Translations under genes and position numbers: made by a program
Part shown: in pieces, positions 1 to 32,624 of the stretch
How positions within the stretch are numbered: the stretch's first letter is position 1
How the letters are laid out: each line of letters starts with the position of its first letter
Assembly: GCA_903920145.1 (NCBI GenBank)
Contig: CAIXKV010000128.1
Location: forward strand, 1-32,624
Reading direction: 5' to 3'
Source: an uncultured Rhodospirillales bacterium
Lineage (GTDB): Bacteria > Pseudomonadota > Alphaproteobacteria > Azospirillales > Azospirillaceae
DNA: 32,624 bases
The notes under the pieces: generated by a model
What the model was told of the DNA's origin: nothing
The model's database searches: none
The model's input: only the letters and a program-made list of their open reading frames with translations

Positions 1-60
1 CTGCTCCCGGCGCGCCCTGCTCCGGCCCCCTCGCCGGTCCTCGGGCCGCCCCGGCGGCCC

Positions 61-279
61 CGCGTCCTCGAGGACGCGACGCCCCAGTGTGTGGACTCTA
101 GGGGGCGCGGATGCGCCCGCCCGGCGTCTGAGGGCCGCCTTGATGAGTCACCATCAAGGCCCGATGGTATCGGTGGCGACCGCCGCCGCGCGCCCCATGG
201 CGCGAAGCCAAGGGCGCGGATGCGCCCGCCCGGCGTCTGAGGGCACCCTTGATGAGTCAACGTCCAAGGCCATTGGTAT
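61..279 (+). repeat. Multi-hairpin dispersed repeat, two tandem copies
   Basis: Two copies of the window's main repeat. The first has hairpin H1 at 61-78 (CGCGTCC, loop, GGACGCG), a diverged core at 103-129, and an H3 module at 130-170 whose stem GCCTTGATG/CATCAAGGC (137-145, 152-160) is perfect. The second has a complete 38-nt core at 201-238 and an H3-like module at 239-279 with a decayed stem. The core holds hairpin H2, GGGCGC-GGAT-GCGCCC. The stretch 1-316, downstream of proS, contains no gene I can support. The reading frames that cross it also occur in other repeat copies and reflect the repeat, not coding. Confidence 0.85.
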
Positions 280-316
280 CAGACCGGCACTGTGTGGTTG
301 CCACGAACTCCCGGCT

Positions 317-1879: not shown

Positions 1880-4717
1880 ATGCTGGCTTTGGGTCCGATC
1901 GCTTTTGCCGTGCCCTGGGTGCTGGGCGCCGTGCTGTTGTTGCCGGTGGTGTGGTGGCTGTTGCGCCTGACGCCGCCAGCTCCTCGGCGGGTGCGGTTTC
2001 CGGCGGTGCGTCTGTTGCACGGGTTGATCGCGCGGGAGGAAACGCCGGCGCACACGCCGCCTTGGTTGCTGTTGCTGCGGCTGATCATCGGGGCCTTGGT
2101 GATCGTGGCGCTGGCCGAGCCGGTGCTCCATTCCGATGCGCCCTTGCCGGGTACCGGGCCGATCTTGCTGGTGATCGACAATGGGTGGAGCGCCGCTCGC
2201 GATTGGCCGGCCCGTCAACAGATGATGGCCGATGTGCTGACCAGGGCCGAGCGTCAGAGCCGTTTGGTGGTGGTCGCCGCCACCGCGCCGATGGCGGCGC
2301 CCGGAAACGGCAGTGACCAGGGACGTGACCAGGGAGGGGCAAAGCCGCAGGTGATCGGGCCGATGGCGGTTGCCGAGGCCCGGCGGCTGGTGCAGGGATT
2401 GGAGCCGCAGCCTTGGCCCGAGGATCGGGCGGCGACACTGGCCGCCCTGAAGACGATGCGGCTGAGGGGTACGATTTCTTCCGTGTGGTTGAGCAATGGT
2501 CTGGAGGATAACGGAGCGGCCCCGCTGGTCGATTTTTTGAACCGATTGGGCGGTTTACGCGTGGCGGTGCCAGAGCCATTGCCGGATCTGCTGCGGCCTC
2601 CGGTGATCGAAGGAGAGGCTCTGACGGCGCGTCTGATTCGGGCGGCCCCAGGGCCGGAACGGGCGGTGGCGGTGCAGCTCTCGGCGGGAGATGGCCGCCC
2701 CCTAGCCGAAGAGACCGCCACTTTTGCCGCCAACGTCACAACGGCCTCGGTACGTTTCACCCTGCCGTTGGAGTTGCGCAATCAAGCCGCAAGGATCAGT
2801 CTTCAAGGGCAGGCGACGGTTGCGGCAACGGTGCTGCTGGATGAGCGGTGGCGGCGGAAGCCGGTGGGTTTGGTGACGGGCCGTCAGGGCGACGAGTCCC
2901 AGCCCTTGTTGAGTGATTTTTACTACCTAGACCGGGCCTTGGCGCCCACCAGCGAAATTCGGCGCGGCAGTCTTTCGGAGCTGTTGGCCGAATCCGTTTC
3001 GGTGCTGATCCTGCCTGATATCAAGGTGCTGGACGGTGACGAGGCCCGGATGCTAGGCGCATGGGTGGCTCATGGCGGCCTATTGCTGCGCTTTGCCGGG
3101 CCGCATCTGGCCCATGATCCTGATTCTCTTCTGCCGGTGCGGCTTCGGGCCGGAGACCGAGCCTTAGGCGGGGCGCTGTCTTGGTCCAAGCCGCTGCCGT
3201 TGGCGCCTTTCGATCCGGGCTCGCCCTTTGCCGGTTTGACTCTGCCGGCGGATGTCACCGTCGAGCGTCAGGTGTTGGCCGAGCCCACCGTCGATCTGGG
3301 CGATCATACCTGGGCACGCTTAAGCGACGGCACGCCCCTGGTGACGGCGGCCCGGCGCGGCCAGGGCTCCATCGTGCTGGTCCACACCACCGCCGGTCCC
3401 GATTGGTCCAATTTGGCGCTGTCGGGGCTGTTTGTGGACATGCTGCGGCGGGTGGTGGCGCTGGGAACCGGGCTTGACGGTGGCGGGCAGAGTCAGGCGT
3501 TGGCGCCACTGGCTCCCTTGACCCTGTTAGATGGGTTGGGGCGGTTGGGTGAACCGCCAGCGACCGCACTGCCGATCTTGGCGAATGCCTTTGCCGGGAC
3601 GCGGGTTGGGCCAGACCACCCGCCGGGCTTTTACGGTGTAACCGAAACCCGCCGCGCTTTGAATCTAACCGCCAGCCTTGAGTCCCTGGCACCGCTGGCG
3701 TTGCCGTCGTTCGGTGTGACCGTCACCGGCTATGCTCTAACCGGCGAGCAGGCCTTGAAGCCGGTGTTGTTGATGGCGGCTTTCGTTTTGGGGCTGTTGG
3801 ATCTGGGGGTGGCTTTGGCGCTACGCGGTCTTCTGATCCCGGCGGCCTATGGCAACGACCCATCGCCAACCTCTGACCACGACGGCGGCCGCGTGTTCTC
3901 GTGGACGCGAAGCCAAGGGCGCGGACGCGCCGGGAGACTCCGGGGGCTGTGGTTGCTGGCGGGGTTGTCATTATCGTTGCTGTTGCCGTTGTCGTTCGTT
4001 CCGGCGTGGGCAGCGGCGGATGACGAGGCCGCCGGGCGGGCCACCGCCAAAACTTGGCTGGCATATGTGGTGACCGGCGATGCAGGCCTGGATCAGACCA
4101 GCCGGGCCGGTCTCGAGGGGTTGTCGCGGGTGCTGATCCGGCGGACTTCGGTGGATGTTGGCGGCGTAGCGGCGGTCTCCCCGGAAACCGACGAGCTGGC
4201 GTTTTTTCCGCTGCTTTATTGGCCGGTGCCGGCGGCTCCGGTCGGGTTGTCAGAGGCGGCTCGCCGCCGGATCAATGACTATCTGCATCATGGCGGCACC
4301 ATTCTGTTCGACAGTCGGGATGACCAGGGCATGGGGGCTCCGGCGCTACGGGCGGTGACGGCGGGGTTGGATTTACCCCCCCTGACGCCGCTACCCTCAA
4401 ATCACGTCCTGACCCGCTCGTTCTATCTGCTCCAGGACTTTCCCGGACGCACCGACGGCGGCGACGTCTGGGTTGAGGCACGGGAGGATCGGCGGTTGGA
4501 TGGCGTATCGTCGGTGATCGTTGGCGAGAATGACTGGGCTGCGGCCTGGGCGGTGGATGCACAGGGGCAACCTTTGTATGCCACGGTTCCCGGCGGCGAG
4601 ACTCAACGCGAAATGGCCTATCGTTTTGGTGTCAATTTGGTGATGTACGCCCTGACTGGCAATTACAAAGCCGATCAGGTTCATGTGCCAGCGATTTTGC
4701 GAAGGATCGGGCAATGA
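1880..4717 (+). CDS. DUF4159 membrane protein with N-terminal BatA-like region
   Basis: A 945-residue inner-membrane protein. Hydrophobic segments lie near residues 8-28 and 60-80 (BatA-like N-terminus). They are followed by a degenerate von Willebrand A-like region with DNGWS where a DxSxS metal site would be, and then a long periplasmic-type region. Further hydrophobic segments are at about 632-661 and 689-712. The DUF4159 domain (about 718-935, with LLYWPVP and [10 protein letters not shown]) forms the C-terminus. Proteins of this type usually sit with a MoxR ATPase and a DUF58 protein; the molecular role is unknown and is guessed to be envelope-related. The stop overlaps the next ATG (ATGA at 4714-4717), so translation is probably coupled. 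Oddity: residues about 667-684 come from a copy of the dispersed repeat. GTG at 1875 is out of frame, so ATG 1880 is preferred. Confidence 0.88.
3880..3931 (+). repeat. In-frame intragenic copy of the dispersed repeat
   Basis: This part of the DUF4159 coding sequence aligns with the spacer, H1 and start of the core of the repeat family, including GGACGCGAAGCCAAGGGCGC. H1 here is CGTGTTC/GGACGCG, which pairs with two G-U wobbles in RNA. H2 is GGGCGC-GGAC-GCGCC, nearly complete. It encodes roughly [18 protein letters not shown], in the loop between two hydrophobic segments. The H3 and H4 modules of the full element are absent. Confidence 0.8.
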
Positions 4718-6804: not shown

Positions 6805-6863
6805 GACCGGCGAAGCCGTGACAACGGACTTGCCGCCGGCCCTTGGGCTGCGCCCTGCACCCG

Positions 6864-6912
6864 CAAGGAAGCATAGCCTCCTTGACCTCAAGACGTTACG
6901 GAAGAAACGTCA
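6864..6912 (+). repeat. Two-hairpin repeat B, copy 1
   Basis: Stem CAAGGA (6864-6869) and TCCTTG (6879-6884) around a 9-nt loop, then stem GACGTT/AACGTC around an 8-nt loop. A second 49-nt copy at 10906-10954 matches 37 of the last 42 positions and keeps both stems. It lies between convergent genes. It is followed at 6919-6940 by a perfect 9-bp hairpin (CAAAGGGCC/GGCCCTTTG) and at 6946-6960 by GTGGGC-AGA-GCCCAC. Confidence 0.7.
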
Positions 6913-8538: not shown

Positions 8539-8654
8539 ATCGCAAAGGTCGCCCTGAAGGCGATCACAGCCCGGCCATCATAACCAACCCCTGATCATGA
8601 CGCCACCTTGACGCTGGCCGGACGACCGGCGACAAGACGGGCTCGCGATGGCGG

Positions 8655-8750
8655 CTCCGCGCGCCCATGCGCGCGAAGCCAAGGGCGCGGATGCGCCCGC
8701 CCGGCGTCTGAGGGCCGCTTTAATGTGTCAACATTAAAGCTTAATGATGT
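8655..8750 (+). repeat. Multi-hairpin dispersed repeat, one copy
   Basis: Core at 8672-8709, preceded by an H1 variant (CGCGC...GCGCG) and followed by an H3 module at 8710-8750. The H3 stem here is GCTTTAATG (8717-8725)/CATTAAAGC (8732-8740), where other copies have GCCTTGATG/CATCAAGGC. Two positions changed on both arms, so pairing is preserved. It fills the space between the TerC-family and yqhA-like genes and ends about 10 nt before the latter. Confidence 0.85.
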
Positions 8751-8766
8751 GAGGGGATGAGTGGTG

Positions 8767-9291: not shown

Positions 9292-9312
9292 GACCGGCCA
9301 GCCCTAACAATG

Positions 9313-9502
9313 ATACCATCGGGCCTTGATGGTGACTCATCAAGGCCGCCCTCATACCATCGAGCCTTGATGTTGACTTATCAAGGCTGCCCTCAGACGC
9401 CGGGCGGGCGCATCCGCGCCCTTGGCTTCGCGTCCACGAGGACGCGGGGCCGCCGTCGCGGCCCGATACCGGCAGTGTGTCATCGTTATAGCTCGCCGGG
9501 AT
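9313..9502 (-). repeat. Multi-hairpin dispersed repeat, inverted copy with two H3 units
   Basis: On the + strand: two tandem 41-bp H3 units (9313-9353 and 9354-9394, each with a 9-bp stem from GCCTTGATG-type arms), the inverted core (9395-9432), H1 (CGCGTCC/GGACGCG), a GC spacer, and an H4-like stem starting ATACCGGC at 9466. The right arm of H4 reads GCCGGGAT instead of GCCGGTAT. The element ends about 10 nt before the start codon of the SLC13-type gene, so it supplies that gene's leader. Confidence 0.85.
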
Positions 9503-9511
9503 GAGATCTCC

Positions 9512-10885: not shown

Positions 10886-10905
10886 GGGCAAGAAAGGCAA
10901 GAGGG

Positions 10906-10954
10906 CAAGGACGCATAGCCTCCTTGCCCTCAAGACGTTATGGGGAAAACGTCA
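10906..10954 (+). repeat. Two-hairpin repeat B, copy 2
   Basis: Second copy of the element at 6864-6912. The first stem is extended here to a perfect 11 bp (GAGGGCAAGGA 10901-10911 with TCCTTGCCCTC 10921-10931) around the same CGCATAGCC-like loop. The GACGTT/AACGTC stem is also kept. It lies between convergent genes, 20 nt after the SLC13-type stop and 12 nt before the guaB stop, so it may serve as a transcript end for both. Confidence 0.7.
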
Positions 10955-26846: not shown

Positions 26847-27053
26847 ATATACCACCATCGCGCCTTGATGGGCCTCGAGCCTTGATGAGACGCCCCCTCC
26901 CTCATACCACCGAGCCTTGATGGTGACACATCAAGGCTGCCCTCAGACGCCGGGCGGGCGCATCCGCGCCCTTGGCTTCGCGTCCACGAGGACGCGGGGC
27001 CGTCGTCGCGGCCCGATACCGGCAGTGTGTCATCGTTATAGCTCGCCGGTATC
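26847..27053 (-). repeat. Multi-hairpin dispersed repeat, inverted copy
   Basis: Decayed H3-like pieces at 26847-26903, then an intact H3 unit (26904-26944, 10-bp stem AGCCTTGATG/CATCAAGGCT), the core (26945-26982), H1 (CGCGTCC/GGACGCG), a GC spacer, and H4 (ATACCGGC 27016-27023 with GCCGGTAT 27045-27052). It is nearly identical over about 100 bp to the copy at 9354-9502. It lies between livF and the convergent EamA gene and abuts the latter's stop codon. Confidence 0.88.
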
Positions 27054-27936
27054 ACCGACTCCCCCGCCGGGCTACGACGATTCCCGCCGCAACGACGCTT
27101 GCGCCGAGGGCCTGCCACGGCCCCAGAGCTTCCCCCAAGGTCACCCAGGCCAACAGCGCGGCAGTGGCAGGTTGCATCAATAAACTCACCGAACCAAAGG
27201 CCGCCGGCAGATGGGCCAGAGCATAAGTGATCAGGCTTTGGCCAATGGCTTGGCTGAACACCCCGAGCCCGATCAGCATCCACCACCCCCAGCCTGTGGT
27301 GGCCAGCAGCCGCTCGCCTGTGCCCACCGCGATGACCAAGAGTGCTAGAGTGGCGGCAACGCCGCTCCACGTCATGATGGTCGCGGTGGAGAAGCGTTGA
27401 CGCAAACGCCCTACAGCCAGAATATAACCGGCATAGAACTGGGCACTGGCCAGGGCCAAACCATCCCCCGCCGAGTGTCCGGGCTCAAATGAAAAGGATG
27501 CGCCGATCAACACCACAGCCCCGGCCAGCGCCAACACCAAGCCTGTTAAAAATGTGAGGGTAAAGCGGTCGCGAAACAGTAACCAGCCGTAAAGAGTCAC
27601 AAAAATCGGCGCAAAATTACATAATAAGGTGCTATTAGCCACCGAAGTCCAGTTCAACGACCAGTGCCACAATGATAAATCCACGGCGAAACAGAGGCCA
27701 GGCACGGAAAGATCAAGGAAATCCCGCAAAGACGACGGGCGACGCTGATCGGGACAGCACCGCCGCTCGACCAGCAACCACGCCACCAGCACCGGCAACG
27801 CCAAGGCCAACCGCCAAAAAGCCGAGGCCACCGGCCCCAGCTCTCCCAACCGGAAGAAGATCGGCGCAAAGCCGATGGCAGCGCCTCCGGTCAATAATGC
27901 GATTAGGGCAAAGCGTGCCCGGCGAACAGTGGCCAT
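27052..27936 (-). CDS. EamA/DMT-superfamily transporter
   Basis: A 294-residue inner-membrane protein with about 10 hydrophobic segments in two EamA halves (about 10-140 and 152-290). Typical features are FAPIFFRLGELGPVASAFWRL in the first half and a VSLLMQPATAALLAWVTLGE segment near the end of the second. Members export amino acids, nucleosides or other metabolites; the substrate cannot be assigned. Start ATG 27936; the upstream region contains no clear Shine-Dalgarno. The final codons touch the H4 arm of the adjacent repeat, so the repeat has probably inserted right at or into the original 3' end. Confidence 0.9.
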   Translation of the reverse strand: MATVRRARFALIALLTGGAAIGFAPIFFRLGELGPVASAFWRLALALPVLVAWLLVERRCCPDQRRPSSLRDFLDLSVPGLCFAVDLSLWHWSLNWTSVANSTLLCNFAPIFVTLYGWLLFRDRFTLTFLTGLVLALAGAVVLIGASFSFEPGHSAGDGLALASAQFYAGYILAVGRLRQRFSTATIMTWSGVAATLALLVIAVGTGERLLATTGWGWWMLIGLGVFSQAIGQSLITYALAHLPAAFGSVSLLMQPATAALLAWVTLGEALGPWQALGASVVAAGIVVARRGSR

Positions 27937-29787: not shown

Positions 29788-30009
29788 GCTCATACCGGCG
29801 AGCCCTGATACTGACACATCGCCGGTATCATATGAACAGTAGTCCCCCCATTTCATCGGCATTTTGGGGCATACTTTTTTTGCATTCCCCCTCTCGGCAG
29901 ACTCATATCTGTCATGGACGTCGCAAGCCACCCCCCATTGGGTAAACAAGACACTGACCACCGCAACGATCGCAAGAGTCAACATCACAATTAGCTTGAA
30001 TTTTATCAA
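29788..30009 (-). pseudogene. Possible small secreted-protein gene interrupted by a repeat
   Basis: A reading frame from TTG 30009 (or ATG 29985) encodes a hydrophobic N-terminus (IVMLTLAIVAVVSVLFTQ) followed by a short Cys-containing, secreted-looking stretch of about 35 residues. From about 29829 the frame is the H4 repeat, and beyond it runs antisense to merR (to 29587) with no protein character. I read this as a small gene whose 3' end was replaced by the repeat, or a chance frame. There is no Shine-Dalgarno. The end given here is where protein-like sequence and repeat stop, not a stop codon. Confidence 0.3.
29792..29829 (+). repeat. Isolated H4 module of the dispersed repeat
   Basis: Stem ATACCGGCG (29792-29800)/CGCCGGTAT (29820-29828) around a 19-nt loop. 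The 38 bases are identical to the H4 module at 32497-32534. It shows that H4 occurs without the core. It lies 30 nt after merR and inside the 3' part of a small opposite-strand reading frame. Confidence 0.8.
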
Positions 30010-32204: not shown

Positions 32205-32424
32205 ACGATACGCTCCTTACGGTCAAGGCGAACCCTGCGGGTCCGCCAGGGTGGGACGTCGGCCTCCAGGGGTGCCGCCGTCACAACCGCCGCGCCGCAC
32301 ATGCGGGCGACGATCATTCCAAAAATCCTCCTGCCACCTGACTGCCACCGCATCGCGACGGACAGGCCGGAGAACCCAATTCGAGGTAAGACCAACGGCC
32401 CTAGACAATGATCCGTGCCGTTGG
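32205..32424. other. rplY upstream region
   Basis: 220 bp between rplY and the edge repeat. It holds the rplY ribosome binding site and presumably its promoter, but I cannot assign -35/-10 boxes. No gene is supported: the minus-strand frames here run out of the repeat and lack protein character. Confidence 0.4.
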
Positions 32425-32624
32425 TATCGGCGGCGACCGCCGCCGCGCGCCCATGCGCGCGAAGCCAAGGGCGCGGATGCGCCCGCCCGGCGTCTGATAC
32501 CGGCGAGCCCTGATACTGACACATCGCCGGTATCGGGCCGCGACGGCGGCCCCGCGCGCCCATGCGCGCGAAGCCAAGGGCGCGGATGCGCCCGCCCGGC
32601 GTCTGAGGGCAGCCTTGATGAGTC
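32425..32624 (+). repeat. Multi-hairpin dispersed repeat, two copies cut by the window edge
   Basis: First copy: a GC spacer and H1 variant (CGCGC...GCGCG), then the core at 32458-32495, followed directly by an H4 module (32497-32534) instead of H3. Second copy: GGGCCGC...GCGGCCC spacer hairpin, H1 variant, core at 32567-32604, and the beginning of an H3 module that runs off the end. It shows the module order H4-spacer-H1-core-H3 most clearly. Confidence 0.88.

What the first reader, a model, noticed from the sequence alone, without database searches (positions are those of the whole stretch)
8710..8750. Compensatory changes in the H3 hairpin
In this copy both arms of the 9-bp stem differ from the others at two positions (GCTTTAATG/CATTAAAGC versus GCCTTGATG/CATCAAGGC), so pairing is intact. 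H1 likewise alternates between CGCGTCC/GGACGCG and a CGCGC/GCGCG form. Covariation points to selection for structure, or to copying of hairpins as units.
Basis: seen in the sequence. Interest (0 to 1): 0.5.

Follow-up and report, generated by a model that had tools for sequence, protein, structure and literature searches.

The report
Mobile five-hairpin repeat in alphaproteobacteria
The hairpin with matching changes in both arms is one end of a 150-160 base mobile DNA repeat, made of five hairpins around a nearly unchanging core, that occurs in many alphaproteobacterial genomes and keeps its fold while its stem letters change.

Summary
At 8717-8740 both arms of the H3 stem differ at two positions and still pair, and H1 occurs in two intact forms. 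The hairpin is the right end of a composite repeat: H0, M, H1, an almost invariant core with H2, then H3. The repeat has inverted ends (TACC...GGTA) and a 3-bp TNA target duplication, identical in 26 of 28 listed end pairs of Azospirillum sp. RU38E (permutation mean 8.3) and in 26 of 39 full copies of the window's genome (mean 16.2). The window's genome gives at least 153 matches; 25 of 289 sampled class genomes, in 16 families, match. No Rfam match was found. The H3 change itself is weak evidence: in this genome it is a rare subfamily (4 of 122 units). Across the class the structural reading holds: under a tree-based null every significant column pair (12 of 12; 3 of 3 with a letters-only alignment) is a stem pair, and several unpaired core columns hardly change. 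Best reading: a non-autonomous, MITE-like transposable element with a conserved fold, moved in trans by an unidentified transposase. Whether the fold acts as RNA, as single-stranded DNA, or is kept by palindrome repair is undecided. Overlap with rhizobial RIME elements could not be tested.

The parts
8640..8752 (+). Variant copy holding the finding: M 8640-8657, H1 8658-8675, core 8676-8711, H3 8717-8740, degenerate right end to 8752; no H0 of the usual kind
8717..8740 (+). H3 hairpin with paired changes GCTTTAATG/CATTAAAGC
8676..8711 (+). Near-invariant core AAGCCAAG-H2-GCCCGGCGTCTGA
9311..9504 (-). Full-length copy with two tandem H3 units; TCA/TCA target triplets (read on the - strand, included in the range); core 9393-9428, H1 9429-9446, M 9447-9464
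26902..27054 (-). Full-length copy, 153 bp with its TGA/TGA target triplets (read on the - strand); core 26943-26978, H1 26979-26996, M 26997-27014
32390..32497 (+). Copy with a different H0 (ACCAACGGC...GCCGTTGGT); its core (32462-32497) runs directly into the left end of the next copy
32496..32624 (+). Copy cut by the contig end inside H3; core 32571-32606
169..280 (+). Copy with core 205-240 and a mixed-arm H3
36..171 (+). Degenerate copy with altered core (GCCCCAGTGTGTGGACTCTAGGGG) followed by an H3 unit
3867..3946 (+). Weak-scoring remnant lying inside predicted ORF 1880-4717
29790..29830 (+). Solo H0 palindrome TACCGGCGAGC...TCGCCGGTA flanked by TCA/TCA (triplets included)

Best explanation
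The hairpin belongs to a short, MITE-like transposable element. Its ends are imperfect inverted repeats beginning TACC. It inserts at TNA and duplicates those three bases; it lies mostly outside genes, is rare between divergent genes in the class sample, and also inserts into TNA sites in its own hairpin loops, which builds mosaic arrays. A transposase supplied in trans, not identified here, is inferred to move it. Between the ends lie five hairpins around a nearly invariant core. Stem letters change between lineages while pairing is kept, and unpaired core letters hardly change, so the folded single strand (DNA during transposition or replication, or RNA) is inferred to be what is recognised or selected. 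Within one genome each hairpin exists as a few alleles, mostly inherited whole, and the 8717 hairpin is one rare allele. Shown: repeat structure, ends, target duplication, presence/absence at one syntenic locus, class-wide covariation, near-invariant core. Inferred: trans mobilisation, and the role of the fold.
For: Ends and duplication: 26 of 28 convergent end pairs among the 100 listed of 172 RU38E sites share the same TNA (permutation mean 8.3, max 18); 26 of 39 full copies with both flanks, of 147 core places, in the window's genome (mean 16.2, max 25, p 0.00005); 7 of 9 in other genomes. RU38E sequences of 20 fetched stretches, including three 88-bp deletion forms. Synteny: in G001 the TerC-UPF0114 interval lacks H1-core-H3 of the 8640 copy, and the 9311-9504 copy is absent. 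Fold: 95.8% of 2355 cells paired and 21 of 23 pairs with two-sided changes (alignment fitted to the model); tree-based null 12 of 12, 3 of 3 with MAFFT. Several unpaired core columns have 0-4 inferred changes against 23-35 in the seven columns upstream of M. Spread: 27 of 59 relatives and 25 of 289 class genomes, own genome counted. Nested insertions such as L062 and L148.
Against: No autonomous partner was found: two Y1 transposases, one DDE_Tnp_1_2 hit with a single weak end match and six DDE_Tnp_1 loci in RU38E show no pair of TACC ends framing the gene. Exact end motifs on both sides were seen in only 9 of 97 distinct non-own elements, so mobility is shown for a few lineages only. The CM-fitted alignment leans towards the structure; a neutral alignment gives 3 rather than 12 significant pairs. 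Copying of whole hairpins can mimic covariation and breaks the tree model behind the null. Core columns 76 and 77 are highly variable (33 and 21 changes).
Confidence: 0.78

Rival explanations
1. The palindromes are kept perfect by template-switch correction of quasi-palindromes and by gene conversion between copies, not by selection on the fold; the element is a plain MITE. (The repair mechanism is recalled, from no call.)
For: Within genomes the hairpins come as intact alleles with few mixed copies and recombine between modules in 22 RU38E copies (all four combinations in 1 of 18, 2 of 18 and 1 of 9 allele quartets). In the class alignment 165 inferred pair changes are two-base jumps between Watson-Crick pairs, against 25 to G-T, 11 to A-C and about 28 to other mismatches (the script prefers Watson-Crick ancestors in ties, which favours jumps).
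Against: It does not explain why several unpaired core columns are nearly frozen across families, nor why the outer stem, whose arms lie some 20 bases apart with H2 between them, also shows a paired flip (6 of 109 rows).
Confidence: 0.3
2. A structured small RNA or mRNA-processing element (REP/BIME-like), selected for its RNA fold in transcripts of neighbouring genes.
For: Stable predicted folds. Class sample: left neighbour on the same strand 62 of 92; divergent gene pairs 4 of 87 and convergent 27 of 87, against 31 and 37 of 201 gaps in the same loci.
Against: No strand preference in codirectional gene pairs: 31 against 25 in other genomes, 7 against 6 in the window's genome. The G-T over A-C excess (25:11 and 25:8 events) is no clearer than the general C>T over G>A bias in unpaired columns (64:43 and 22:14).
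Confidence: 0.25
3. Chance or alignment artefact: the two H3 changes are ordinary drift in one decaying copy.
For: The 8640 copy is degenerate (no usual H0, altered right end) and its H3 form is rare (4 of 122).
Against: The same paired form occurs in four separate places, and pairing is conserved class-wide beyond the tree-based null.
Confidence: 0.04

Closest known systems
[quoted passage not shown]
   Same: Short, terminal inverted repeats, short target duplication, mostly intergenic, stable folded transcript predicted.
   Different: Conserved interior: five hairpins and a near-invariant core kept across families of a class; no parent insertion sequence found. The review describes MITEs as typically AT-rich; these stems are GC-rich.
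REP elements, GTAG and CGTC superfamilies, PMC3733652 (abstract and passages read)
   Same: High-copy, mostly extragenic palindromes; CGTC repeats are mainly alphaproteobacterial.
   Different: 150-160 bp with TIRs and a TNA duplication instead of a 20-40 bp palindrome with an unpaired GTAG or CGTC tag; not flanking the two Y1 transposase genes found.
Rhizobium-specific intergenic mosaic elements (RIME; Osteras 1995, PMC177356, not held; seen only as a reference in PMC2873474, passages read; details recalled)
   Same: Intergenic mosaic repeats in alphaproteobacteria, palindromic as recalled.
   Different: Not comparable here: no RIME sequence could be read.
Pneumococcal BOX/RUP/SPRITE elements (passage in PMC10969869; module details recalled)
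   Same: Clustering and insertion of elements into one another; modular stem-loops (recalled).
   Different: Different host group; sequences were not compared in any call.

Membership tests
MITE | Short non-coding element with terminal inverted repeats | tested here: met
   88-166 bp including target triplets in RU38E, 153 bp in the window; TACC...GGTA ends. Absence of a coding sequence is judged from the hairpin make-up; no coding test was run.
MITE | Target-site duplication | tested here: met
   TNA, 26 of 28, 26 of 39, 7 of 9
MITE | Derivation from, or trans-mobilisation by, an autonomous insertion sequence | tested here: inconclusive
   Three Pfam transposase families tried, two in the window's genome and one in RU38E; no transposase gene framed by these ends
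REP (GTAG/CGTC) | 20-40 bp palindrome with unpaired GTAG or CGTC tag | tested here: not met
   Element is 150-160 bp; the CGTC of the core in this genus is not conserved (columns 76 and 77 have 33 and 21 changes); no GTAG seen by eye in the core consensus
REP (GTAG) | Flanks a RAYT transposase gene | tested here: not met
   Two Y1_Tnp genes found in the genome; no element part within the fetched loci around them
RIME | RIME1/RIME2 sequence | not testable with these tools
   Paper not held; paper searches without result
Rfam RNA families (4227 models, release 15) | Match to any covariance model | tested here: not met
   0 matches at gathering threshold in the window; 0 at E up to 1 in six loci from other genomes

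The most novel reading that the evidence does not exclude
A class-wide family of mobile elements, not found described in the papers searched here, whose single-stranded fold is itself the functional part: a conserved core (GCCAAG, CGGA loop, GCCCGGCG, TGAGGG) inside covarying stems that a transposase or host factor reads as structured DNA or RNA, so that the element moves or persists because of its fold and not only its ends.
Probability: 0.35. Interest if true: 0.8.

Novelty: new variant of a known kind. Interest (0 to 1): 0.58.

Why it matters
A transposon-like repeat normally conserves its ends and lets its middle drift (established knowledge of MITEs). Here the middle is conserved as a fold over family-level distances in Alphaproteobacteria, with well over a hundred matches in at least two genomes. 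That gives a natural experiment on selection for nucleic-acid structure against palindrome repair, a structured family that Rfam did not match, and a practical cause of broken assemblies: about 60 of the roughly 150 matches listed begin within 150 bases of a contig start.

Tried and rejected
RNA strand test: the G-T over A-C excess looked like evidence for a folded + strand (cells 44:12 in the window's genome, 34:18 in the class) but is about what the C>T bias in unpaired columns predicts; dropped. Orientation test: no strand bias in codirectional pairs. RAYT origin: rejected for the two genes found. IS5-type partner suggested by the TNA duplication (recalled: the IS1031 group of IS5 uses TNA): not found. 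Autonomous version by pairing ends: no pair of 300-6000 bp among the 100 listed RU38E sites looks like one element; the five listed spans join ends of different copies or lack a match. In N. cyanobacteriorum the end motif is near background (19 against 11 control). Plasmid BLAST with the window copy and with L187: none.

Corrections to my own steps: one search found nothing because of a wrong gap length (replaced); the four-gamete count misread H2 arms (replaced); merged copies with identical interiors, giving 113 instead of 147 core places; one search recounts by genome place (23 of 36 became 26 of 39; conclusions unchanged). Rows dropped before counts: rows under 75 bases or with under 70% Watson-Crick pairs (98 class rows kept of 109 distinct); H3-like sites failing the flank filter (115 of 237).

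Literature searches on the core sequence and its themes gave no description of this element in the open-licence library, judged from listings; only PMC3733652, PMC2873474 and PMC10969869 were opened, in passages. Subscription papers were not searchable.

Full report
What was claimed and what is there. The H3 hairpin at 8717-8740 has arms GCTTTAATG/CATTAAAGC and other window copies have GCCTTGATG/CATCAAGGC, so two pairs changed on both sides. H1 occurs as CGCGCGC/GCGCGCG (85 of 146 places) and CGCGTCC/GGACGCG (44 of 146), with one clear mixed-arm copy.

What it is part of. Reading the copies in register (the output was cut) gives one composite repeat: H0 (TACCGGCGAGC...GCCGGTA), M (GGGCCGCGACGGCGGCCC), H1, the core AAGCCAAG-H2-GCCCGGCGTCTGA, and H3 ending GCTCGATGGTA. 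H3 can be tandem, and elements insert into loops of other elements. The window's genome (4.26 Mb, 269 contigs) gives 53 BLAST matches (40 of 753 first candidates scored) and 153 covariance-model matches at E up to 0.1 (150 of 5617 candidates scored, so a lower bound). About 60 of the roughly 150 listed matches begin within 150 bases of a contig start, and both ends of this window lie in the repeat.

It is mobile. Among 147 core places in the fetched stretches of the window's genome, 39 had both ends and flanks; 26 of 39 carry the same triplet on both sides, against a permutation mean of 16.2 (p 0.00005); 38 left and 37 right triplets fit TNA (an earlier count that merged identical copies gave 23 of 36, p 0.0009). 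Of the 100 listed sites 28 convergent pairs form, 26 with identical TNA (permutation mean 8.3, maximum 18); 20 of the 28 are 162-166 bp long including both triplets. Sequences show five hairpins in full copies and three 88-bp internally deleted forms. In other genomes exact motifs at both ends are found in 9 of 97 distinct elements, 7 with identical TNA. At the window locus the same-genus genome G001 keeps TerC and UPF0114 in order, but the 127 bases between the aligned blocks (155 in the window) have no H1-core-H3, and the copy at 9311-9504 is missing; a short hairpin resembling M is present there. The other three same-genus genomes were not informative at this point.

Spread. Plasmid records of Niveispirillum cyanobacteriorum, Azospirillum oryzae and, over 25% of the query, Nitratireductor thuwali match related queries; one weak Tsukamurella hit was not followed. 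With covariance models, 27 of 59 relatives, 25 of 289 sampled class genomes in 16 families and 9 of 200 phylum genomes match, all 9 in the same class; these counts include the window's own genome, and only 15-77 candidates per genome were scored. How many of the 200 lay outside the class was not shown.

Does the pairing covary? In a 24-row MAFFT alignment 13 of 23 pairs have two-sided changes, with 0 of 500 shuffles as high. In the class alignment (117 matches, 109 distinct), fitted to the model and so leaning towards it, 95.8% of 2355 cells pair and 21 of 23 pairs have two-sided changes. A home-made R-scape-like test (FastTree tree, Fitch reconstruction, substitutions re-placed at random along branches, G statistic with APC, 300 null alignments) finds 12 significant pairs of 3321, all 12 in the structure; 11 of the 23 structure pairs are not significant. 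Realigning the same sequences by letters alone leaves 3 significant pairs, all in H2. No significant pair lies outside the structure in either run. Exchange of whole hairpins between copies violates the tree model, so these values are not proof of independent compensation.

What the H3 case shows. Among 122 H3 units the double change occurs four times; left arms with both changes also occur with half-changed or mismatched right arms (L007, L030, L112). H1 alleles combine with either H3 form, and in 22 RU38E copies all four combinations occur for some allele pairs.

RNA or DNA? G-T outnumbers A-C in stems (25:11 and 25:8 events), but unpaired columns show the same C>T excess (64:43 and 22:14), so this is not evidence. 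In codirectional gene pairs the element lies 31 against 25 ways in other genomes and 7 against 6 in the window's genome. In 99 non-own elements the left neighbour is on the same strand in 62 of 92 cases (p 0.001), because convergent gene pairs (27 of 87; 37 of 201 gaps in the same loci) are common and divergent ones (4 of 87; 31 of 201) rare. In the window's genome, of 43 copies with both neighbours 21 are convergent, 9 divergent and 13 codirectional, and 5 of 147 lie inside predicted genes; the scarcity at divergent pairs is not seen there. Gene calls are from a simple codon-usage script trained on this window. These facts fit an element tolerated at gene ends and give no support to a strand-specific mRNA role.

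What the core implies. In the class alignment unpaired core columns 51, 58-60, 68 and 70 show no inferred change and 46, 50, 69, 71, 75 and 78-82 show 1-4, while the seven columns upstream of M have 23-35; columns 76 and 77 inside the core are as free as flanks. A MITE need not keep its interior, so something probably reads this core; what it is remains inference. No Rfam family matched.

Comparison with known kinds. It meets the MITE tests for size, ends and target duplication, but no parent insertion sequence was found in three transposase families. It fails the REP definition of PMC3733652 (abstract and passages read). RIME elements are the most likely published overlap and could not be compared. 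I file it as a new variant of MITE-like or mosaic repeat with an unusually conserved fold.

Noticed in passing
window 6863-6912 and 10905-10954: A second, unrelated 50-bp imperfect direct repeat (88% alike) with the hairpin-like stretch ACGTTA...AACGT; its seed string was not found elsewhere in the fetched G000 loci.
   Followed up: partly
window 82-105; also L009, L029, L148 (L046 and L117 by eye): A variant core in which GCCAAG is replaced by GCCCCAGTGTGTGGACTCTAGGGG, seen in several copies; possibly a separate lineage of the element.
   Followed up: no
L044 (G000:C169), around the Y1 transposase at locus 1501-1821: A RAYT-like transposase gene followed by tandem TGTCACCGTAACC-type units, which looks like its own REP family, unrelated to this element.
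   Followed up: no
L034 and L035 (Magnetospirillum MAGs): Copies at matching places beside a gene beginning MRVLGLDPGLR (ruvC by recall, not searched) in both MAGs; W65 has two tandem copies before it where 64-120 has one.
   Followed up: partly
L190 and L198 (family f160): Tandem arrays of the element about 136 bp apart.
   Followed up: no
window 1-32624 and many G000 contigs: Assembly contigs begin or end inside the repeat, so copy numbers are underestimated and neighbour links across copies are unreliable.
   Followed up: partly
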